From the IMG/VR virus record IMGVR_UViG_3300020123_000159, positions 1 to 33,856 of that record: a DNA stretch of 33,856 nucleotides; one strand, 5' to 3'. The position numbers and the translations under genes are program-made. Of the stretch, positions 649-22,324 are shown in pieces (the first letter of the stretch is position 1; the number at the start of each line of letters is the position of its first letter). Under the pieces are notes generated by a model. That model was not told the DNA's origin and ran no database searches. It saw only the letters and a program-made list of their open reading frames with translations. The stretch is from a virus.

Positions 649-731
649 AAGTGGATGACGTGCAGCGCCGCGAGGATCAGGATCACGAACGACCCGATCA
701 CGCAGACGGTGGTGAGTTCGGACAATCCCAT
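645..731 (-). CDS. 28-aa membrane peptide downstream of holin
   Basis: The ATG at 731-729 overlaps the holin TGA (TGATG), so translation would be coupled. The product has one hydrophobic helix (CVIGSFVILILAALHVI) and ends HF. It sits in the lysis cassette after endolysin and holin, where small membrane proteins such as second holins or spanin-like pieces are common. I know no family for it. Coupling and composition are seen in the sequence; a lysis role is inferred. Confidence 0.5.
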   Translation of the reverse strand: MGLSELTTVCVIGSFVILILAALHVIHF

Positions 732-1039
732 CAGGGCTCCTCCTTCTTCGGGACGGCCGGCCACGGGAGCGTCTGCTCGGGCGGCTCCGGCTCGGGCCAG
801 CCTTCCTCGGGAAGATGCTTCTGCCCGTTCCCGGCCTTGTAGCCGAGCCAGCCGCCTAGCAGACCAATCGTCCCCGAGAACGCGGCGGTCAAGACCTGGG
901 TTTCGTTGTCAGAGAGCGAACTGGCGGTGTTCCCGTGCTCGACCGCGGCGATGCCGACAGCAGCCACGAGCGCCACAACGGCGATCGAGAGGCCGGCGGC
1001 GAGGATGATCGCTACCCAGTCCGACGTGCCGCGCTTCAC
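731..1039 (-). CDS. Holin-like membrane protein
   Basis: This 102-aa protein starts at a GTG overlapping the endolysin stop (GTGA). It has two hydrophobic segments, about residues 8-33 and 44-67 (the second glycine-rich, GTIGLLGGWLGYKAG), and a charged proline/glutamate-rich C-terminus ending PKKEEP. Size, two membrane spans, a hydrophilic tail and position directly after the endolysin fit a class II-type holin, which permeabilises the membrane and releases the endolysin to the wall. A longer frame upstream reads inside the endolysin gene and lacks a better ribosome site. The holin call rests on topology and context, not on a family motif. Confidence 0.7.
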   Translation of the reverse strand: MKRGTSDWVAIILAAGLSIAVVALVAAVGIAAVEHGNTASSLSDNETQVLTAAFSGTIGLLGGWLGYKAGNGQKHLPEEGWPEPEPPEQTLPWPAVPKKEEP

Positions 1040-1947
1040 GGCTCCGCCACCCGCACGAACACGACCCCGCTCAGGTTGCGGGTCTTCCTGCACACCTCGC
1101 CGCCGTTCGACTGGTCACCGTGAGCATCCGAAGAGGTGTTCCCCTCGACGCTCGAGAACTGACTGCGGCCTGTCGTCCACTTCTCGAACAGGCCCACGTG
1201 GTCGAACACCCCGTCGCGCTGCCAGTCGAAGCAGACAAGATCGCCGGGGATCGGGTCCTTCGTCACCGCTAGGCCGTTCCTGTAACTGCGTCCGTCCGAG
1301 ACGATGTAGGGGACGTAGGCGTACGTTTCGCCGCGCCGGAACGACGGCGAGTTGCCCGCCTGCTCGTATGACCAAGTGGTGAACATCGCACACCACGGCC
1401 CGACCATCCCGTACCAGTCCGTGTACTTGGTGCGGTTCGAGAACTTCGGTGATTCCTTCACGCCGATCTGCGTGACCGCCTGCGCGAGCGCGAGGCTCCG
1501 AAGGTCCGGAGACGGGTCGGGCTTCGGCTCCTTGCCGCCGAACTGCTCCCACGCCTGCACGAGCAGGCTCTGTGCGCGCGCGTCCATCGCCATCTCGCCC
1601 TCGTGGACGCCGCGCGGAACGCGGATCTGGCGCAGCACATCAAACGTCTGCTGCCCTATCCAGCCCGTGTCGTCGATCCCCATCTGCCGCTGCACCCCCG
1701 CGACGCCCGAGCCGGAGACGTTGCCGCTCTTCCCGTGCGCGAACGCGTCCGAGTACGCCTGGTCGAACTTCCCCCACTGCCAGCGGCCCGCCCTCGAGAC
1801 GGTGCGCTTGTAGGCCTCCACATCGGGGCCGTTGACGCTCGGCGTCTTGCCCTTCTCGGCGGCGTCGGGCGGGAAGAGCGGCCGAGGGAAGCCCGGCACC
1901 GGGACAGGAGGACCGAGCGCGTACGGCTTGGTCCACCAGTCCGCCAT
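1036..1947 (-). CDS. Endolysin: peptidoglycan-binding plus CHAP/NlpC-like amidase/peptidase
   Basis: This 303-aa protein starts at an ATG overlapping the stop of the 75-aa gene (ATGA). Residues about 43-105 resemble a peptidoglycan-binding domain (GVAGVQRQMGIDDTGWIGQQTFD). A catalytic CHAP-type cysteine-peptidase/amidase fold follows: Cys186 in GPWCAMFTTWSYEQAG, His250 in FDHVGLF and polar Asn270 in VEGN, in the Cys-His-Asn order of that family. There is no signal peptide, as expected for a holin-dependent enzyme. It would cleave peptide cross-links or the amide bond of host peptidoglycan at the end of infection. Family assignment is strong; the exact bond cut is unknown. Confidence 0.88.
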   Translation of the reverse strand: MADWWTKPYALGPPVPVPGFPRPLFPPDAAEKGKTPSVNGPDVEAYKRTVSRAGRWQWGKFDQAYSDAFAHGKSGNVSGSGVAGVQRQMGIDDTGWIGQQTFDVLRQIRVPRGVHEGEMAMDARAQSLLVQAWEQFGGKEPKPDPSPDLRSLALAQAVTQIGVKESPKFSNRTKYTDWYGMVGPWCAMFTTWSYEQAGNSPSFRRGETYAYVPYIVSDGRSYRNGLAVTKDPIPGDLVCFDWQRDGVFDHVGLFEKWTTGRSQFSSVEGNTSSDAHGDQSNGGEVCRKTRNLSGVVFVRVAEP

Positions 1948-2174
1948 CAGGTGACGCTGATCGTCCCGGTCTCCTCCCCGGAGTGCGACCCTGCGACCGT
2001 CACCTCGACCTCGCCGCTGAAGTCTCCCGGGAAGAACAGGTTTGATTCGCCGTCGTTGTCGACGTTCCGCTTCTCCTCGCCGGCGACCTGCATCGAGGCG
2101 TGGCTGCCCTTCACGACCTCGGTGTCCCAGCCGATCACGGCGACCTTGCGAATGCCCTTCAGCTCTACCGTCAT
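1947..2174 (-). CDS. 75-aa hypothetical protein, beta-rich
   Basis: The start is the ATG at 2174, preceded by a good ribosome site (AGGAAGGAG, 5 bases upstream). The stop overlaps the endolysin start. The product (VELKGIRKVAVIGWDTEVVK then SGEVEVTVAGS) alternates polar and hydrophobic residues like a small beta-sandwich or barrel, with an acidic middle. No family is recognised. Being between the internal-virion genes and the lysis genes, it could be a small virion accessory or a lysis regulator. Confidence 0.65.
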   Translation of the reverse strand: MTVELKGIRKVAVIGWDTEVVKGSHASMQVAGEEKRNVDNDGESNLFFPGDFSGEVEVTVAGSHSGEETGTISVT

Positions 2175-2212
2175 GGTGCTCCTTCCTGTGGATTCAGGTC
2201 TTTCGGGGGGTG

Positions 2213-2228
2213 CGCGCGGTACCGCGCG
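2213..2228. promoter_or_regulatory. Perfect 16-bp palindrome upstream of the plus-strand membrane gene
   Basis: CGCGCGGTACCGCGCG is a perfect palindrome in the 72-base gap between the minus-strand ATG at 2174 and the plus-strand ATG at 2247. It could be an operator or a small hairpin controlling the isolated plus-strand gene. No clear -35/-10 pair is visible beside it. Confidence 0.4.
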
Positions 2229-2246
2229 GCGCGTACCGTGGCCGCC

Positions 2247-2477
2247 ATGAGTTTCTGGCTGGCAATCGGCGCAGGTGTCACTTTCTGCGGCCTCGCCCTG
2301 TTTACGTTGGTACGAACGCGCGGCTCGTCGGCGGTGTTGGCCTTGGCGATGTTGGCCGGGGCTGCCGTCGCCTTCTCGGTCGCCGGGCTGGCAACGAAAC
2401 ACGAGGACGAGCATCATCCTGCCCCTGCCACGGGCTACTTCAGCGATTCGGGCAGCTCCGGCTACTTCGCGAAATAG
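2247..2477 (+). CDS. 76-aa two-helix membrane protein with GYF...GYFAK C-terminal tail
   Basis: This plus-strand gene is isolated inside the minus-strand virion block. The product has two hydrophobic helices (about residues 3-22 and 27-48) separated by RTRG, then a charged HEDEHH linker and the tail TGYFSDSGSSGYFAK. The opposing 791-aa virion protein ends in a longer tail of the same kind, with TGYF near its beginning and SGGSGYFAK at the end. The two stop codons lie in the palindrome 2459-2480. There is no convincing Shine-Dalgarno before the ATG. An independent gene such as a lysogenic-conversion or superinfection-exclusion factor, or a membrane docking partner for the virion protein, is possible. 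Composition and the shared tail argue it is real; expression is unproven. Confidence 0.55.
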   Translation: MSFWLAIGAGVTFCGLALFTLVRTRGSSAVLALAMLAGAAVAFSVAGLATKHEDEHHPAPATGYFSDSGSSGYFAK

Positions 2478-2480
2478 CCG
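2459..2480. terminator. Palindrome containing both stop codons of a convergent gene pair
   Basis: CGGCTACTTCG / CGAAATAGCCG pairs over 22 bases with one internal mismatch. It encodes GYFAK-stop on both strands. As RNA it would form a hairpin at the 3' end of either transcript, so it may act as a weak bidirectional terminator as well as coding sequence. Confidence 0.5.
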
Positions 2481-4837
2481 CTGCCGCCCGACGACGACGA
2501 ACCAGAGAAGTAGGGGCTGCCGCCACCGCTGCCGCCCGAGGTGCCAAAGTAGCCGGTCGACGGCTTCGTCTTGGGCGCTTGCGGCCCGTACGTTTGCATC
2601 CCGATCCCCACCGAGCCGACGCCGTAGCCGGCAAAGGCTGCCATCAAGCCGTTCATGCCTCCGTGCTGCTCCTTGTAGAGGTCATGGCTGTCCTGGGCGA
2701 GCAGCGGGATCATCCGTTGCGCCGCGGCCGCCTTCCATGAGAACTTCTGCCCGATCTGGGTGGAGCCCCGCATCCAGTCAGTGATCAGGCTCGCGATCGG
2801 CGACTCCTTCCCCATGAAGAACCGCTGCACGATGTCGAGCCTCGTCGGCTTCCCGAACCCCCCGGCCGTCAGGCTCAGCCTCTTCCCGGTCGTCGAGCTG
2901 ATCGCGACTCCGCTCGCGAACTGAGCGAGCAGCCGCAGCTCCTGCTGGAACCCGCCCGCTATGTCGATCCGTGTGTTGCCGATCCGGATCTTCCCCCAGT
3001 CCGGGTTTCTCGGATCGGTGTTGACCTTGACACCTGGGATCTGTGAGGCGAGCCCGAGTAGCGTGGATGCTGTCCCGGCGAGCTGGATCGCCGACCGGAG
3101 AGCCTCCTTGCGTGCGAACGGGTGCAGGCGGGCGTAGTAGGCCGGGTTGAGGAAGTTGAGGCGGGAGGCCATCAGGCGGGGGGAGAAGAAAACTGCGTTC
3201 AGCGCATTGGCGGCCGGCGCTAGGGTGCGGAGCTCGCCGCGGCCGGTGGCGGAACCGATGTACGTGCCGAGGCTCTCTAGGAAGTGCGGGTCATGGATGT
3301 TGACGCCCTGGCTCTGGGCGCTCTTGATCAGATGGTCGAAGACGTCGGCGCGTGTCTTGTCGAGGAAGCCGGTGTAGGCGCGGCCCGAGGCGCGCACGGG
3401 GCTGTACTTGCCGCCGGTCAGCGTCTCCGCGTAGCTGGACGCGAACCGCTCCTCGCGCCCGCCCACGTCGTGACCGAGCTCGGTGATCGGCAGCTTCGCC
3501 TCCACCATCAGCGGATACGTTGCTCGCGCCCGGATCTCGTCGTGTATCCCGTGGTACACCTTCTCGCTGCCGAACGCCTTGACCATCGAGCCGAAGTTCC
3601 GGCCGAAGATCGTCGGGTGGCGCGTGGCGACCATGAGCCCCTGCCGGAACGGCGCCGACAGGTCGAACGAGGCCATCAGCGACCGCGGGATGTTGAGCGC
3701 GTTCACCAGCGCTTCCCTGCCCGGATTCTTGGCGAGCCCGACCAGTCCCTCGCCGGTTCCTTTTCCGAAGACGTGCTCGAGCAGGAGGATCTCGCTGCGT
3801 GTCGGGACTGTCCCTCCGAGCGCGTTCACCAGCGCGTGCGAGGCGTTGAGCTTTTGGTAGAACCCGAGGTTCGGGTGGTTGCGGATACTGGTCTGCGCTT
3901 CCTGCAACGTCTTCTCGTTCAGATCACCGAAGCCCAGGAAGTTGATCTTCGGAAGCGGGCCGCGCTGCTCGGCCCTTGCTTTCGCGAACGCCTCGGCCGC
4001 CGAAAGGTTCGGGTTATCGAGATGAGCTTGGCCGGCGGCAACCCGTTGGGCTCTCGCCGGCGTGTACCCCGCCTCCTGCTTCCCGCGAGCGATCTTCGCG
4101 CCCGGCAGGGCGCCGCGGACCGTAGCGGCCGCCTCGGTGGTGTGGGCCGCCGCGGGCGCGGCTTCGACCACGTTCTTGACGCCAGGAATAGTCCGGAGAA
4201 CCTTGAGCCCGTACCCCAGAACCCCGGCGGCCTCGATCGCACCCCCGCCGGGAAGAACCGTTGTAGCCGCCTCGACTCCCCGCTTTACAGCCTGGACGGG
4301 GCTCGTCGTGCCGCCTTCGTCGAGCCCACCAGGAACAAGTGACCGAGCGATGTAGCCCGGCTTCCCGTAGTTCGCGACCTGGATCTTCTTGGCTGTCGCG
4401 ACCTGGGCCGCGTTCAGCTGCGTGCTCTCCTGCCCGGGCGGCCCGGCGCCACGCTTGAGCGTGAACGTGTTCGTGTAGTAGGGGCGCAGAGCGAGATGGG
4501 CGCCCGGCTGGAACTTCCCTCCGGGCTTCACCCAGGAGCCGTCCGGGTTCCTGAGCCCCTGAACGTGGCCGGCGACGGGCTCGGTGGCGAAGTTCGGGGC
4601 GAACCGCTTCACGGTCGACCGGTCGACCGGCTGGACGCTCTGCGTGCTCGAGGACGGGGCCGCTGGCTTCGCTTGCGGCGCGGGCTTGGCCTTCACCGGC
4701 ACGGCACGGGTATGAGCACGCACCTTCACGACCTTCACCGGAGGAGGAGGCGCGGCCGCGGGGGTAGGCTTCGGCCCCGCGAGCAGCTTCGGCTGCGCGA
4801 GCGCCGAGCCCGCGCGGGTCGGGAAGTACGAGCTCAC
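2462..4837 (-). CDS. Large internal-virion / DNA-ejection-type protein (791 aa)
   Basis: The GTG start overlaps the stop of the 560-aa gene. The N-terminal ~100 residues are Pro/Ala/Lys-rich and low complexity. The middle and C-terminal part contains blocks that I associate with large podoviral internal virion or polyvalent proteins: IPRSLMASFDLSAPFRQG, GRAYTGFLDKTRADVFD, NAVFFSPRLMASRLN and GKIRIGNTRIDIAGGFQQ. Such proteins travel in the capsid or tail and help eject DNA through the cell envelope. The last ~34 residues form a Gly/Ser tail with TGYF, PYF and GYFAK motifs, shared with the small convergent membrane protein. Family placement is from memory of conserved blocks; the tail function is unknown. 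Confidence 0.7.
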   Translation of the reverse strand: MSSYFPTRAGSALAQPKLLAGPKPTPAAAPPPPVKVVKVRAHTRAVPVKAKPAPQAKPAAPSSSTQSVQPVDRSTVKRFAPNFATEPVAGHVQGLRNPDGSWVKPGGKFQPGAHLALRPYYTNTFTLKRGAGPPGQESTQLNAAQVATAKKIQVANYGKPGYIARSLVPGGLDEGGTTSPVQAVKRGVEAATTVLPGGGAIEAAGVLGYGLKVLRTIPGVKNVVEAAPAAAHTTEAAATVRGALPGAKIARGKQEAGYTPARAQRVAAGQAHLDNPNLSAAEAFAKARAEQRGPLPKINFLGFGDLNEKTLQEAQTSIRNHPNLGFYQKLNASHALVNALGGTVPTRSEILLLEHVFGKGTGEGLVGLAKNPGREALVNALNIPRSLMASFDLSAPFRQGLMVATRHPTIFGRNFGSMVKAFGSEKVYHGIHDEIRARATYPLMVEAKLPITELGHDVGGREERFASSYAETLTGGKYSPVRASGRAYTGFLDKTRADVFDHLIKSAQSQGVNIHDPHFLESLGTYIGSATGRGELRTLAPAANALNAVFFSPRLMASRLNFLNPAYYARLHPFARKEALRSAIQLAGTASTLLGLASQIPGVKVNTDPRNPDWGKIRIGNTRIDIAGGFQQELRLLAQFASGVAISSTTGKRLSLTAGGFGKPTRLDIVQRFFMGKESPIASLITDWMRGSTQIGQKFSWKAAAAQRMIPLLAQDSHDLYKEQHGGMNGLMAAFAGYGVGSVGIGMQTYGPQAPKTKPSTGYFGTSGGSGGGSPYFSGSSSSGGSGYFAK

Positions 4838-6516
4838 GGCGGCGGCGCCGTCGCGATCACCCCGAGCGGCCCCTTGCTACGCACGACGATGTCGGGCGGG
4901 TAGGCCTTGTTCAGGCGTGCCATCGCCAGCCGTTTCAGCGCCGGCGAGGAGAAGTAGCCCTCCTTCTCAAGCTCGGCCATCGCATCGGCCCGACTGGTGA
5001 TCGGGCCGAGCGTTTTACCGGTTCGATCTTTCACGGCCGTCCCGGACGACGTGTACCCCGACTGCATCGTGGCGAGTGCATCGTCGACCCTCTGGACTTC
5101 CGTCTGCGCCTCCGTCGGGGTTAACGTCTTCTTCTTCGGCGTCGCCGTCGGCAGCCCCTGCGCCGGCACCCAGCCGCGGCCGCCTTTATCCCACTGGTAG
5201 GTAACGCCGTTGATCGTCTTCGTCGTCGGCGCCGTCGCCGACGGGGTCTTAGCTGCCGCAACCGGCAGACCCGACTTGACCCAGCCACGGCGTCCGGCAT
5301 CCCACATGTAGGTAACGCCGTTGATCGTCTTCGTGCTAGGCGCGCTCGTCGACGGCGCGGCCACCTTCGGCCCCGCAATCCGGCGCCTCGCTCCGGTGTC
5401 CTCGTTCACGACGTAGGTGCCCGAGGCGTCGCTGACAGTGGTGTAGTGCGGTGTCGGTGTCGCCGCCGCCTTTCCTTCACCGACCCTTCTCCTTGCCCCC
5501 GTGTCCTCGTTGACGACATAGGTCCCGGTCGAATCCGTGACGGTCGTGTAGTGCGGCGTCGGTGCTCCGGGCTGCTTGCCCTCCCCGACCCTTCTCCGCG
5601 CGCCTGTGTCCTCGTTGACAATGTAGGTTCCGGTCGAGTCGGTGACCGTCGTGTAACGCGGCCTCGATGTTGTCGGTGTCTTGCCCTCCCCGACTCGCCT
5701 CCGAGCACCCGTGTCTTCATTGACGACGTAGGTTCCCGTTGAATCCGTGACGGTCGTGTAGTGCGGCGTCGGTGGTGCCGCCGCCTTCGCCTTCGCCGCC
5801 GCGACCTTGTCGCTACGAGTGAGGTCGAACTCGCGTATGTGCTCGGCGTCCGACGCGGCCGTCTGCCCGAGCGAGGCGGCCCGGTAGTTCGCCGTGTCGA
5901 TGTTCGACTGCGCGTCCGACACGAGCTGCGGTCGGGTCGCCTCGAGCTTCGCCCTATCTTGGCTCTGCTGCCACATCGCCGAGGCAAGACTCTGGTCGCC
6001 GCTGAGCTTGCCGATGTACGGAAGCGTCCGCGCGAACGTCTGCGCCGCGGCCTTGTTCCCGGCGAGCTCGGAGCCGGGGATGGTGCCGCCCGTGAACGCG
6101 AGCACCCCGGCGCCACCCCGGAACACGTTTCCGAGCTGCGCGGCCTCCTGCGCCTGCTGTTCCGGCGGCGCTCCCACCGAACTCGTGAGCGCCTGCTGCA
6201 TCGGGGTCGGGTTCTGCCCCGAGAGGTACTGCGCCGCCTGCCCGGAGAGCCCGCCGATCTGCTGGATCGCCTGGTCGTAGTCGCCGCCGACCTGTTTCGC
6301 GACCGGCTGCAGCTTCCCCAATAGCGAGCGCGCGAACGACTGGATGACGGCGTTCTGGTGCGCGGCGTAGAGGTTCTGCTGCGCGAGCTGCGGCCCGAGG
6401 ATCGCCTGTGCCTGCTGGGCGGCGGTCGGGCCTGTGTAGCTAGGCACCCCGCCCGCCCCGCCGGCAGCCATTGCGGTAGGGCGAGCGAGCACGTAGGTGA
6501 CTCTCGGTGGAGGCAT
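4834..6516 (-). CDS. Virion-associated protein with four 35-aa tandem repeats (560 aa)
   Basis: The N-terminal ~230 residues are Gln/Ala-rich and predicted helical. Then come four tandem 35-residue units with the core YTTVTDSTGTYVVNEDTG and ARRRVGEGK, the fourth diverged. Two ~37-residue units follow, each with TKTINGVTY and a Trp-rich GRGWV segment, and then a charged helical C-terminus. Repeat units look like short beta-hairpins, as in surface-binding or linker modules. It lies between two other large proteins after the tail genes, the usual place of ejection or internal core proteins in podoviruses. The stop overlaps the next start (GTGA). No enzymatic motif is visible. Confidence 0.65.
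   Translation of the reverse strand: MPPPRVTYVLARPTAMAAGGAGGVPSYTGPTAAQQAQAILGPQLAQQNLYAAHQNAVIQSFARSLLGKLQPVAKQVGGDYDQAIQQIGGLSGQAAQYLSGQNPTPMQQALTSSVGAPPEQQAQEAAQLGNVFRGGAGVLAFTGGTIPGSELAGNKAAAQTFARTLPYIGKLSGDQSLASAMWQQSQDRAKLEATRPQLVSDAQSNIDTANYRAASLGQTAASDAEHIREFDLTRSDKVAAAKAKAAAPPTPHYTTVTDSTGTYVVNEDTGARRRVGEGKTPTTSRPRYTTVTDSTGTYIVNEDTGARRRVGEGKQPGAPTPHYTTVTDSTGTYVVNEDTGARRRVGEGKAAATPTPHYTTVSDASGTYVVNEDTGARRRIAGPKVAAPSTSAPSTKTINGVTYMWDAGRRGWVKSGLPVAAAKTPSATAPTTKTINGVTYQWDKGGRGWVPAQGLPTATPKKKTLTPTEAQTEVQRVDDALATMQSGYTSSGTAVKDRTGKTLGPITSRADAMAELEKEGYFSSPALKRLAMARLNKAYPPDIVVRSKGPLGVIATAPPP
5190..5340 (-). repeat. Two ~111-bp repeats in the 560-aa gene
   Basis: Two copies of a unit encoding TKTINGVTY(M/Q)WD followed by GWV, about 37 codons apart, lie downstream of the 35-aa array in the same gene. 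DNA identity is highest around the INGVTY codons. Confidence 0.7.
5377..5775 (-). repeat. Four tandem 105-bp repeats in the 560-aa gene
   Basis: The coding sequence repeats every 105 bases (for example gaccc/gactc at 5482, 5587 and 5692), giving four 35-aa units. The three upstream units are nearly identical in protein and the last (nearest 5377) has diverged. In-frame periodicity means copy number could change without breaking the gene. Confidence 0.85.
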
Positions 6517-7589
6517 CAGCCTGCCCTCGCGTTTCTGGCCGATTGGCCGGCGTAGGGATTAGCGGTCGCAAGCCTGGGCGGCGAGGGAGTCGGGCGTGCG
6601 GTCGGTGACGCCGGCGGCCTGTAAGCGGTGTTGCTCGGCGACAACGCCGAAGCGACCGGCGACGTGCCGGTTGCGGCGGCGTTCGCAGCGGCCTTCGGCC
6701 CGCCCGTGTCGGCGGCCCCCCAGAACTGCGGGTTCTGCACGTAGGTCTGGTAGGCGCCGAGCAGTGCCTTCGTGACGTCGGAGTGCAGCCCCTGCTTCGC
6801 CGACACGTCGGTCGCCGCAGCGGTGTTCAGCCCGCTCAACGCAGTCTGCAGGCCACCGTACACGTCACGTCCGTACGCCTCCTGGTTGCGGGTCGTCGCG
6901 TAGCCGGTCTGCCCCGAGTCGAGCATCCCGTGTGCGGCCAACGAGTCGAGGATGTTCTGCTGGTTCTCGTCCCTCGTGCGCTGGTACCCGGCGACCGTCG
7001 AGGTGCCCGCCGCGGTGTTCGCCTGCGCCATCGAGGCGGTGAGCGGGTTGATGTTGAGCCCGGCCGCCTGCGCGAGCGAGGGGTCGCCGAACTGGACGAT
7101 CGCCTGCTCCTGCGCGGCCCGCAGCGCGTTGTCTGCCTGCTGGCTGCCGGTCTGCTCGGCGGCGAGGGCGGATAGGTAGCCGGGGTCGGTCAGGAACGGG
7201 TTCGTCGTGCCGCCCCCGGTCGCCGCGGCGGGAGCAGCGAGCGCGGTGCTGACCGGAGATGCGGCAGCTGCCGCGGCGGGTGCGCTAGCGGGCGCAGTGG
7301 GCGCCGCCGCGGCCGCCTTCTTCTGCTGCGCGATCACGCCCTTCGCGTAGCCGCGGTAGTCCTGCGGGCTCGCGTACTCCCAGCGCTGATTCACCGGGTG
7401 GGAGCCGCTGACGGTGATGTTCCCCGTCGGCCCGTAGGTGCGGTAGAGGGCGTTCTTCGGAACCTCCCCGTAGGTGAAGCTCTTCGCGGTTGCCCCGCCC
7501 AATCCGCCGAGCGTCGCGGCGATCTTCGGGGTCGCGTAGTTGGCGATCCTGCCGGAGAAGATGCCTTTGTAGGGGTTCGTCGCTGCCAC
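6516..7589 (-). CDS. Virion-associated protein, Ala-rich (357 aa)
   Basis: The GTG start has a ribosome site GGGAGG 5 bases upstream. The N-terminal block (NPYKGIFSGRIANYATPK) is Gly/Tyr-rich. A long Ala/Pro stretch follows at about residues 90-125, then a helical Gln/Ala/Asn-rich region with DENQQNILDSLAAHGMLDSG, and a Pro/Thr-rich disordered end. The pattern resembles podoviral internal core proteins that sit next to the tail genes. The stop overlaps the ATG of the 560-aa gene. No catalytic motif is seen and the function is inferred from position only. Confidence 0.6.
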   Translation of the reverse strand: MAATNPYKGIFSGRIANYATPKIAATLGGLGGATAKSFTYGEVPKNALYRTYGPTGNITVSGSHPVNQRWEYASPQDYRGYAKGVIAQQKKAAAAAPTAPASAPAAAAAASPVSTALAAPAAATGGGTTNPFLTDPGYLSALAAEQTGSQQADNALRAAQEQAIVQFGDPSLAQAAGLNINPLTASMAQANTAAGTSTVAGYQRTRDENQQNILDSLAAHGMLDSGQTGYATTRNQEAYGRDVYGGLQTALSGLNTAAATDVSAKQGLHSDVTKALLGAYQTYVQNPQFWGAADTGGPKAAANAAATGTSPVASALSPSNTAYRPPASPTARPTPSPPRLATANPYAGQSARNARAG

Positions 7590-7615: not shown

Positions 7616-8620
7616 TCACGGCCATATCTGCGCCCACGCGCCCGAAGCCTTGAACCAGATGTGCCCAGTCGCGGTGTCGAGGTAGTAGGCGCCGTCGTCG
7701 CCGAGGCTCGAGGCCGGTGTGCCGCTGCCGTGGAACCAGAACGTCCCGACACCGGGATCCACGCCGACACCGGACTCGTACAGCGTCGCGACCTCGGCCG
7801 CCGTGAGCGCCCACCCCCAGACGCTGACCTCGTCGACGGCGCCCTTGAACGACGTGGGGACACCGCCGGTGTTGACGCCGTAGCCGATGTAGAACCCGAA
7901 GCCGGCCGAGATCAGCTGGAACGTCGTCGCGTCGCTCGCGGCGAGGATGCCGTTGACGTACAGGTTGTGGCCTGCGGTTCCGTTGTAGGTGCCGACCACG
8001 AAGTACCAGGTGTCGGCGACCATCGCGAGGCCGGTCGCAATCCCGTCCGGTGTCCCGCCGGCGGCGCGACGCCGCTCGAAGAACGGCGTCAGCGCCGGGA
8101 AGTTGACGCCGATCCGGTAGCCGCTGCCGCCGTAGGTGCCGTCGTTGAACCACTCACCGGCGACGGTGGCGGGAGCCGCCGTCGTGCCGGCGCTCGGCTT
8201 GATCCAGGCGGCGACGGTCACCGCCGTGTCGGTCAGCGCGAAGTCGAACCGGGTGGGATCGACACCGCCGGTCGAGAGATAGTCACTGAGCGCGAAGGCG
8301 TTGAACGCAACGGCGCCGTCATCGTCTGCTGCCGGGAGCGCGCCGGAGACGTTCTCCGACATCGCGGTCGTCGAGGTGTGCTTGACGGCGGCGGCCGGGG
8401 TCACGTGGCCGGACGTGTCCGCGAACGGGGAGGCACCTTCCCCGAGCCGCCAGTAGCCGCGCAGGTCGCGGGTGGCGGCCAGCTCGGCGACGGCCTCGGC
8501 GAACGAGGGAGTGTCGACGATCTGGGTTGTGTCCTTACGCAGGAACCACGGCTCGAGCCACGACTTCAGCTCGACGAGCGCCTTGTCGGTGAAGTCGTAG
8601 ACCGAGTCGATCTTCGCCAT
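7616..8620 (-). CDS. LamG/concanavalin-like tail adhesin (334 aa)
   Basis: The ATG start follows the nozzle gene immediately. After a short N-terminal helical segment (SVYDFTDKALVELKSWLEPW), residues about 50-290 have the hallmarks of a LamG/concanavalin-A-like lectin sandwich: GYWRLGEGASPFADTSG, TVAAWIKPSAG, TWYFVVGTYNGT, NLYVNGILAA and GAVDEVSVWGWALTAAEV. The C-terminus (DDGAYYLDTATGHIWFK) matches short beta modules common in phage fibres and is echoed in the 809-aa fibre ([13 protein letters not shown]). It probably binds surface polysaccharide as part of the adsorption apparatus. Confidence 0.8.
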   Translation of the reverse strand: MAKIDSVYDFTDKALVELKSWLEPWFLRKDTTQIVDTPSFAEAVAELAATRDLRGYWRLGEGASPFADTSGHVTPAAAVKHTSTTAMSENVSGALPAADDDGAVAFNAFALSDYLSTGGVDPTRFDFALTDTAVTVAAWIKPSAGTTAAPATVAGEWFNDGTYGGSGYRIGVNFPALTPFFERRRAAGGTPDGIATGLAMVADTWYFVVGTYNGTAGHNLYVNGILAASDATTFQLISAGFGFYIGYGVNTGGVPTSFKGAVDEVSVWGWALTAAEVATLYESGVGVDPGVGTFWFHGSGTPASSLGDDGAYYLDTATGHIWFKASGAWAQIWP

Positions 8621-20785: not shown

Positions 20786-22324
20786 TCAGGTTGTGTAGCT
20801 CGGGCGGGCGTCCTGCTCGCGCTCCCAGCGCTCGTCCATCGCCTTCAGGAGCTCCGAGCGCATCCAGCGCTCCGCCGCCGCCGGGTCGTTCTCGAACGTC
20901 TCCTCGGGCTCACTGCTCGCACCGGGTCTACTCATTGCGCCGTAGCGGCAAGCCGCATGGGCGTGGCCGTGCGCGCCCTCCCACTTGACCGCAACCGCCT
21001 CCAGTGGATGCGGGCCACTGGTCGGCCCGGGTTCACTGGTTTCCAGTGGCGCGTCCTTCAGTTGCTCGATCAGGTTCACGCAGCGGTCACTGACGAACAA
21101 CCTTGGTGCGGGACTCTCGCCCGCGCGCTGGTGCCAACTCGGGTAGCGGCGGCCATCCTCCATCCGCAGTAGCTCACTGAGCCTGAGGTAGCCCGCCTTG
21201 CGGTCATTGTTCGCGCGTACAAGTGACACTCCACTGTCGTGGAACTCGTCGGCACTGTTCGCCTCCCGGCCGAACTTGTTCGTGACGCCCTTGCCGATCC
21301 ACAGTGACGGGTCGGCCCAGCAGACACTCGAGCGCCACCACTTGCGCCGCGCGAGGATCTTCGGCGCGATCTCGCTGGGCAGGCCCGGCTCGTAGAACTC
21401 GTCGTAGATGACCGCGTTTCCATCGTAGTCAACGCACCACGCGAGCCAGCAGGTCGGGTTGTTGCTCCCGTAGTCGGCGCTCTCGAAGCGCTCGAACGTG
21501 GACGGCGGCTCCCAGGCGCCATGCACGACGTGGTAGTGCTCGCTGAAGCGGTAGGCGAGCCCCTCGTCCTCGAGCAGCTCGGCGTCGAGCTCCTGCCTGC
21601 CTAGTCGGGTTCCTTCGTAGCGCCGGATGATTGCAGTGGCGAACGCGGGGGCCAGGTTACTGAGATTGTCGTAAGTGGTGCCGTGAGTGACGACGCAGTG
21701 TTCATCTCGTACGAGATCACGTATGAGTCGAATCGGCTTGGGGGTGGTGGTGACACACGCTCGAGGGTCAGGACCCAACCGAAGGCCGAGCATCGCCATG
21801 TCCCACGTCTCCTGCGGATACTGCCAAGCCGCGATCTCATCGGCCCAAAGTGCTTCACACTGAAGTCCTCTCACGCCCTCGGGGTCCTCGCCGGTGCGGA
21901 ACTCGCTGATCGCCCCATTGGGCCACTTGAGCACCCGCTTGGTCGCCTGGTACTCCGGGCGCTCGTGCCTCGGGCAAACCGCGAGGATCCCCGACTCGCC
22001 CTCGATCATCACCGAGCGCATGTCGCCGGCGTCCTTGCCCAACAGGGCAACCCGCTCGTGCGCCTTGACCTTCTCGCGAACCCACTCCGCACCGACCCGG
22101 GTCTTCCCGAACCCGCGGCCCGCCATCACGAGCCAGAAGCGCCACTCGCCCTCAGGCTCGAGCTGGTTCGGCCTCGCCTGCCAGTTGCGCCACTGCCAGG
22201 CGAGCGCGGCCTTCGCCTCGTTGGAGAGCGTGCTCTCCAGGCTCTCCCGCTCCTCCGCCGGCAGCGCTGCGAACTGCTGCAGCGGCGACAGCCTCGGTGA
22301 AGCGATCGATCGCGTCGGAGACAT
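20786..22324 (-). CDS. terL: Terminase large subunit (packaging ATPase/nuclease)
   Basis: This 512-aa protein powers DNA translocation into the prohead and cuts concatemers. Walker A is AGRGFGKT (residues 68-75), preceded by the adenine-binding-type RPNQLEPEGEWRFWLV. Walker B with catalytic Glu is ALWADE (158-163). A C-terminal RNase H-like nuclease begins with ESADYGSNNP (Asp284). The ATG at 22324 has GGAGG 9 bases upstream, so it is well supported even though it lies 173 bases inside the upstream gene. No intein or interruption is seen. Confidence 0.93.
   Translation of the reverse strand: MSPTRSIASPRLSPLQQFAALPAEERESLESTLSNEAKAALAWQWRNWQARPNQLEPEGEWRFWLVMAGRGFGKTRVGAEWVREKVKAHERVALLGKDAGDMRSVMIEGESGILAVCPRHERPEYQATKRVLKWPNGAISEFRTGEDPEGVRGLQCEALWADEIAAWQYPQETWDMAMLGLRLGPDPRACVTTTPKPIRLIRDLVRDEHCVVTHGTTYDNLSNLAPAFATAIIRRYEGTRLGRQELDAELLEDEGLAYRFSEHYHVVHGAWEPPSTFERFESADYGSNNPTCWLAWCVDYDGNAVIYDEFYEPGLPSEIAPKILARRKWWRSSVCWADPSLWIGKGVTNKFGREANSADEFHDSGVSLVRANNDRKAGYLRLSELLRMEDGRRYPSWHQRAGESPAPRLFVSDRCVNLIEQLKDAPLETSEPGPTSGPHPLEAVAVKWEGAHGHAHAACRYGAMSRPGASSEPEETFENDPAAAERWMRSELLKAMDERWEREQDARPSYTT

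What the first reader, a model, noticed from the sequence alone, without database searches (positions are those of the whole stretch)
2247..4837. Convergent genes on opposite strands share a C-terminal GYF...GYFAK tail
A small two-helix membrane protein (plus strand) and a 791-aa virion protein (minus strand) both end in a Gly/Ser tail that begins with TGYF and ends GYFAK-stop. Both stops lie in one palindrome (2459-2480), so the last five residues are identical from either strand. The similarity extends ~15 residues further than the palindrome. This suggests a copied, inverted tail and perhaps a docking or sorting signal that brings the virion protein to a membrane partner. I know of no described system like it.
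Basis: partly seen in the sequence, partly recalled or inferred. Interest (0 to 1): 0.75.

Follow-up and report, generated by a model that had tools for sequence, protein, structure and literature searches.

The report
Phage membrane protein copying virion-protein tail
In a group of uncultured phages, a tiny membrane protein encoded tail-to-tail with a large virion protein ends in the same short peptide as that virion protein, and where the peptide differs between two such phages it differs in both proteins, which hints at a self-recognition tag, perhaps used to block rival phages.

Summary
The plus-strand 76-aa membrane protein and the minus-strand 791-aa protein converge and share TGYF...GYFAK tails. 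A 44-bp palindrome (2448-2491; 18 of 22 positions pair) explains the last nine residues; TGYF lies beyond it. A relative (L005) has the same membrane-protein body (88% nt identity) but a different doubled tail, YDFTP...YDFTPAP, and its virion protein ends YDYTP...YDYTPSTP, with non-overlapping stops. So the tails switched together. The motif also sits at the virion protein's own N-terminus in L005, L009 and L010. Tail DNA is no more alike than the peptides require.

The small gene behaves like a moron: a convergent insert with a family-specific leaderless-promoter box, present in five of seven close relatives (window included) and absent from L003 and L004, where the flanking genes abut. The tail is not universal: L002 and L009 carry a different body with only a partial match, and L010 a tailless 39-aa protein.

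Best reading: a membrane-anchored mimic of the terminal motif of an ejection-type virion protein, most likely for superinfection exclusion (SieA/Ltp-like logic). The main rival is a bidirectional terminator palindrome whose peptide similarity is incidental. The sequence pattern is well supported; the function is untested.

The parts
2233..2246 (+). Promoter-like box GTACCGTGGCCGCC directly before the ATG: -10-like TACCGT at 2234-2239, no Shine-Dalgarno, so probably leaderless
   Evidence: Box conserved in 5 phages (GTGTACCTTGGGCCGCC in four). The exact 17-mer pattern gives 5 records in all of IMG/VR: four of this family and one chance hit inside a gene. The longer pattern with ATGAG gives 4: three of the family plus one chance hit. 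One copy per genome.
2247..2477 (+). Small membrane protein gene (76 aa, two predicted TM helices), convergent with the virion gene
   Evidence: relative in L005 with dN 0.077, dS 0.29 over the body and differences by codon position 7/2/11
2430..2477 (+). C-terminal tail TGYFSDSGSSGYFAK-stop
2448..2491 (.). 44-bp imperfect palindrome holding both stop codons (core 2459-2480); predicted hairpin on both strands; possible bidirectional terminator without a T-run
2462..4837 (-). 791-aa virion protein, last of three internal/ejection-type genes before the lysis genes
   Evidence: no Pfam or PHROG family; low-confidence model mostly helical with disordered ends; nearest BFVD structures include uncultured-phage LPD-domain proteins
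2462..2557 (-). C-terminal tail TGYF..SPYF..SGYFAK-stop of the virion protein (three aromatic motifs on Gly/Ser linkers)
4820..4834 (-). N-terminal motif SSYFP (residues 2-6) of the virion protein; in L005 and L009 the same place carries SSYDYTP / SSYDFAP, matching their C-termini
1947..2174 (-). 75-aa conserved protein; starts on the far side of the gap filled by the small gene
1036..1947 (-). CHAP-domain endolysin
   Evidence: Pfam CHAP E 4.6e-8, PHROG endolysin E 3e-31
731..1039 (-). Holin candidate (two hydrophobic helices) directly after the endolysin, so the small plus-strand gene is not the only holin candidate
   Evidence: a similar protein lies at the same place in L005
28775..29920 (-). 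Tyrosine integrase: the phage is probably temperate
   Evidence: Pfam Phage_integrase E 3e-16

Best explanation
The small plus-strand gene is a moron-like insert with its own leaderless promoter, placed convergently at the end of the gene for an ejection-type virion protein. It makes a tiny membrane protein whose tail is predicted to lie outside the cytoplasmic membrane and carries the same lineage-specific motif (GYF or YD[YF]TP) as the termini of the virion protein. Most likely mechanism: in a lysogen the membrane-anchored tail occupies whatever the ejected virion protein's ends must bind (each other or a host envelope factor), so a superinfecting phage with the same motif cannot complete DNA entry. 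Shown: gene presence/absence, conserved box, purifying selection on the body, matching tails that differ together between the two phages with this body, and matching virion N- and C-termini. Inferred: membrane topology, ejection role, prophage expression and exclusion.
For: Tail switch: the window and L005 small proteins are 88% identical in body DNA, yet their tails follow their own virion protein (alignment scores 52 own vs 25 other; 60 own vs 18 other) with shuffle p about 2e-4 and 4e-4. The motif is found in the L005 genome only at virion N-term, virion C-term (x2) and small-protein C-term (x2). Virion N- and C-termini match each other across phages (permutation p 0.003). The peptide SYDFTPAP-stop ends both the L005 small protein and the L009 virion protein with a different codon at all five fourfold sites, and tail DNA similarity does not exceed the synonymous expectation. 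Insert logic: the small gene fills a 150-300 nt gap in five phages, while L003 and L004, which lack the box and the gene, have abutting flanking genes. Integrase present. Precedent: P22 SieA, an inner-membrane protein, blocks entry, and escape mutations lie in the C-terminal regions of ejection proteins gp16 and gp20 (PMC10883804).
Against: Only one clear motif switch (window vs L005) supports co-variation with the small protein. The L002 and L009 small proteins have non-significant tail matches (p 0.15, 0.13) and L010's has no tail. Part of the window similarity is dictated by the palindrome. Virion N-C matching is not significant in L002 and L003. No expression, topology or infection data; no homology to any known exclusion protein. 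The virion protein has no family match, so its ejection role rests on gene order.
Confidence: 0.35

Rival explanations
1. Nucleic-acid explanation: the two convergent 3' ends share a bidirectional terminator hairpin or inverted repeat. Because both stops sit in the palindrome and are read in register, both proteins end alike; the tail is carried along with the virion module in recombination and has no function as a peptide.
For: 44-bp palindrome unique in the window; hairpins more stable than shuffles on both strands in window (z -2.1, -2.8) and L005 (z -3.8, -2.3); in L005 the two stops again lie in a CCGTAG..CTACGG palindrome. YFxK-stop encoded TACTTC...GAAGTAG is palindromic by itself (L002).
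Against: No T-run after the hairpin; no significant hairpin in L002 (z -0.4, -1.0). Tail similarity reaches beyond the palindrome in the window (p 0.0008), and both tails are doubled in L005 with 55 nt between the arms. DNA similarity is not above the synonymous expectation. The virion N-terminus, 2.4 kb away, carries the same motif. Inverted repeats are read in the same register in 4 of 4 phages, although any register would form a hairpin.
Confidence: 0.3
2. Docking: during the lytic cycle the small protein brings the virion protein, or a shared partner, to the membrane for assembly or for pre-lysis membrane change.
For: Matching tails on a membrane protein and a virion protein; gene lies next to the lysis genes.
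Against: Convergent with the late operon and under its own promoter box; L003 and L004 carry the virion protein without the small gene, and L010 without the tail, so it is not needed for assembly.
Confidence: 0.13
3. The small protein is a lysis accessory (holin or antiholin), its tail being an incidental Gly/Ser extension.
For: Short, one or two TM helices, close to the endolysin.
Against: Opposite strand to the lysis genes, own promoter box, and a separate two-helix holin candidate follows the endolysin in window and L005; does not explain motif switching.
Confidence: 0.12
4. Chance convergence of low-complexity Gly/Ser/aromatic tails next to an untranslated plus-strand frame.
For: Only seven genomes are available; GC-rich composition favours Gly/Ser codons; tails diverge in L002, L009, L010.
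Against: Purifying selection on the body (dN/dS about 0.26), tail p-values of 2e-4 to 4e-4, motif exclusivity in L005, exact box conservation.
Confidence: 0.1

Closest known systems
P22 SieA superinfection exclusion protein (PMC10883804)
   Same: Prophage-encoded inner-membrane protein of a short-tailed phage that blocks DNA entry; escape mutations fall in the C-terminal regions of ejection proteins gp16 and gp20; carried by only some relatives.
   Different: No sequence similarity found; in the passages read SieA is not reported to share a peptide with the ejection protein or to be encoded convergently with its gene. Exclusion is untested here.
Ltp-type exclusion lipoproteins of Streptococcus thermophilus phage TP-J34 (PMC3952083)
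   Same: Small, surface-exposed, membrane-anchored protein that acts on the C-terminal region of a virion-internal protein (tape measure).
   Different: Ltp is a lipoprotein with repeat domains and is thought to bind by charge complementarity; here a two-helix protein bears the same motif as the virion protein, so the logic would be mimicry.
Phage morons
   Same: Single inserted gene with its own promoter, present or absent at one locus among relatives.
   Different: Reads convergently into the 3' end of a structural gene and shares its terminal peptide.
Amyloid signalling motif pairs of NLR and effector genes (PMC9815663, PMC5485727)
   Same: Adjacent genes, one coding for a membrane-acting protein, carry matching short terminal motifs that vary as a pair (partly from own knowledge).
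   Different: Different proteins, much shorter motifs, no evidence of amyloid here; an analogy only.

Membership tests
Phage moron | Extra gene present or absent at one site among relatives whose flanking genes otherwise abut | tested here: met
   Gap of 150-300 nt filled by the small gene in window, L002, L005, L009, L010; 13 nt gap in L003 and overlap in L004
Phage moron | Own promoter | tested here: inconclusive
   Conserved box with TANNNT-like -10 element 7-9 nt before the start codon (TANNNT described in PMC3898074); transcription not measured
Phage moron | Own terminator | tested here: inconclusive
   Hairpin at both stops in window and L005, no T-run, not clear in L002
Phage moron | Expressed from the prophage | not testable with these tools
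   Only an integrase gene points to lysogeny
SieA-like superinfection exclusion protein | Sequence similarity to SieA or another known exclusion family | tested here: not met
   No Pfam or PHROG match above threshold for P0001; no hit in the phage collection
SieA-like superinfection exclusion protein | Inner-membrane protein | tested here: inconclusive
   Two hydrophobic helices predicted; localisation not shown
SieA-like superinfection exclusion protein | Blocks DNA entry of related phages | not testable with these tools
   Needs an infection experiment
Ltp-type exclusion lipoprotein | Lipobox cysteine after a signal peptide | tested here: not met
   Only Cys is C14 in VTFC, inside helix 1; no lipobox by reading the sequence
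Holin | Small TM protein co-oriented with the endolysin and sole holin candidate | tested here: not met
   Opposite strand; another two-helix candidate follows the endolysin
Bidirectional intrinsic terminator | G+C-rich hairpin followed by a T-run on each strand | tested here: not met
   Hairpin present, no T-run on either side

The most novel reading that the evidence does not exclude
A lineage-specific self-recognition tag: the phage marks both ends of its ejection-type virion protein with an interchangeable short aromatic motif and displays the same motif on a prophage-made membrane protein, so that exclusion (or another interaction) is specific to phages bearing the same tag and changes in step with it.
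Probability: 0.25. Interest if true: 0.8.

Novelty: new variant of a known kind. Interest (0 to 1): 0.52.

Why it matters
In the P22 study the authors say it is difficult to understand how SieA keeps interacting with such diverse ejection proteins (PMC10883804). A membrane protein that carries the same terminal peptide as the virion protein, and that differs in parallel with it in a relative, offers a simple testable answer in another phage group: mimicry encoded next to the gene being mimicked, so that tag and decoy travel together in recombination. It would also give a sequence handle for finding exclusion genes in uncultured phages.

Tried and rejected
Genome scans for prophage relatives found none. 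Pfam, PHROG and PDB sequence searches gave no family for either protein. Structure prediction of the virion protein was poor (pLDDT 49) and its fold matches only suggest uncultured-phage LPD-type proteins. The box hits L014 and L017 lie inside unrelated genes and were rejected as chance. The idea that the tails are a recent inverted DNA copy was tested with synonymous-codon randomisation and not supported; the test has little power. In L005 the virion N- and C-terminal copies are unusually alike in DNA, so recent copying within that gene is likely there. GYF in the 560-aa neighbour is a conserved, unrelated stretch. The major capsid protein had no match in the phage collection, and terminase hits span many hosts, so the host stays unknown.

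Full report
What is in the sequence. The window is a 33,856-base virus record. The plus-strand gene 2247-2477 encodes a 76-residue protein with two hydrophobic helices and the tail TGYFSDSGSSGYFAK. The minus-strand gene 2462-4837 encodes 791 residues ending TGYFGTSGGSGGGSPYFSGSSSSGGSGYFAK. Both stops lie in a palindrome which is 44 bp long (2448-2491, 18 of 22 positions pairing), the only one of its size in the window and in the relatives' records searched. It is read in the same register on both strands, so nine residues are shared by geometry. The additional TGYF match is beyond it (shuffle p 0.0008; whole tail p 0.0002).

Surroundings. Gene order on the minus strand is terminase, portal, capsid, tail fibre, P22 gp10-like protein, lectin-fold protein, 357-aa and 560-aa proteins, the 791-aa protein, a 75-aa protein, CHAP endolysin, holin candidate. 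The 357/560/791-aa trio sits where short-tailed phages keep ejection proteins; that role is inferred. An integrase suggests a temperate phage.

Relatives. Scans of IMG/VR with the virion protein, the small protein, the 75-aa protein and the box yielded six usable relatives of this locus: L002, L003, L004, L005, L009, L010, plus the distant L012. Small-gene bodies come in two kinds: A (window, L005; 88% nt identity, dN/dS about 0.26) and B (L002, L009, probably L010; for L002/L009, L010 by eye). Virion tails come as GYF (window, L002), YD[YF]TP (L005, L009), YAPP (L010), NPFS (L003) and none (L004).

Parallel switch. In L005 the type-A body carries SVYDFTPSPSYDFTPAP, and its virion protein ends SSYDYTPSGSGGGSSYDYTPSTP; the two stops are 8 nt apart and do not overlap. 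Scores of each small tail against its own virion tail exceed those against the other's (52 vs 25; 60 vs 18). L005's small tail matches the L009 virion tail even better (75), ending in the identical SYDFTPAP-stop, with different codons at all five fourfold sites. The virion N-terminus carries the motif as well: SSYDYTP in L005, SSYDFAP in L009, SSRYAPP in L010, SSYFP in window and L002. Across six phages N- and C-termini are matched beyond permutation (p 0.003), though window-type N-C similarity is weak (window p 0.007, L002 not significant).

Limits. In type B the small gene overlaps the virion 3' end. In L002 the plus frame reads GYFPK and continues to YPLPPDGDEPEK; in L009 it reads TYDYGAG. 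Both match weakly (p 0.15 and 0.13). L010's small protein is 39 residues without a tail. L003 and L004 have no small gene. So the paired tail is a property of type A, and the virion motif exists without the small gene. Only one motif switch is therefore a clean independent contrast for the pairing.

Peptide or nucleic acid. Randomising synonymous codons in both tails reproduces the observed DNA similarity (fraction at or above observed 0.30 in L005, 0.19 in window), so there is no sign of DNA copying or base-pairing constraint beyond the peptides; power is low. Strong hairpins do exist at the junction in window and L005 but not in L002, and lack T-runs. A bidirectional terminator therefore remains the main rival.

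An inserted gene. The box GTGTACCTTGGGCCGCC(ATG) precedes the small gene in L002, L005, L009 and L010, with a close variant in the window. The pattern with K at the variable base occurs in only five IMG/VR records, four of them this family and the fifth inside an unrelated gene. TACC[TG]T fits the TANNNT -10 element described for mycobacteria (PMC3898074), and its distance to ATG suggests leaderless translation. Where box and gene are missing, the virion gene and the next gene abut. This is how a moron looks.

Mechanism. By the positive-inside rule the tail of both body types is predicted to be outside the cytoplasmic membrane (inference). A prophage-made membrane protein showing the terminal motif of a protein that enters the envelope at the start of infection suggests a decoy. 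P22 SieA acts at this step, with escape mutations in the C-terminal regions of gp16 and gp20 (PMC10883804), and Ltp acts on the tape measure C-terminus (PMC3952083). Neither is reported to share a peptide with its target in the passages read. I give this reading 0.35. It works like an exclusion protein in outline, but membership in the SieA or Ltp families was tested by sequence and not met.

Verdict.

Noticed in passing
window 6516-7589 (-): The 357-aa virion protein also has a similar motif at both ends (NPYKG near the N-terminus, NPYAG near the C-terminus); homologues in L005, L009 and L010 keep NPY or NAY near the C-terminus.
   Followed up: partly
window 4834-6516 (-): The 560-aa protein contains several near-identical repeats of about 30 residues (TPHYTTVTDSTGTYVVNEDTGARRRVGEGK); L005 has about two copies and L009 none visible.
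   Followed up: no
window 20786-22324 (-): Terminase looks chimeric: most database phages listed match only residues up to about 244, while L010 matches only residues 243-510, suggesting exchange near the ATPase/nuclease boundary.
   Followed up: no
L004 9822-10250 (-): An HNH-endonuclease-like ORF (by eye) lies on the opposite strand downstream of the virion gene in L004.
   Followed up: no
window 2190-2246 (+): TCAGGTCTTTCGG and a TGCG element upstream of the promoter box are shared with L002 and L009 and may be a -35 region or operator; the window alone has an extra GGTACCGCGCGGCGCGTACC inverted repeat there.
   Followed up: partly
L005 virion gene, minus strand, 5' and 3' ends (about 5249-5350 and 8100-8131): N- and C-terminal motif copies are more alike in DNA than synonymous codons predict (p about 0.001), which suggests recent copying between the two ends of one gene.
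   Followed up: partly
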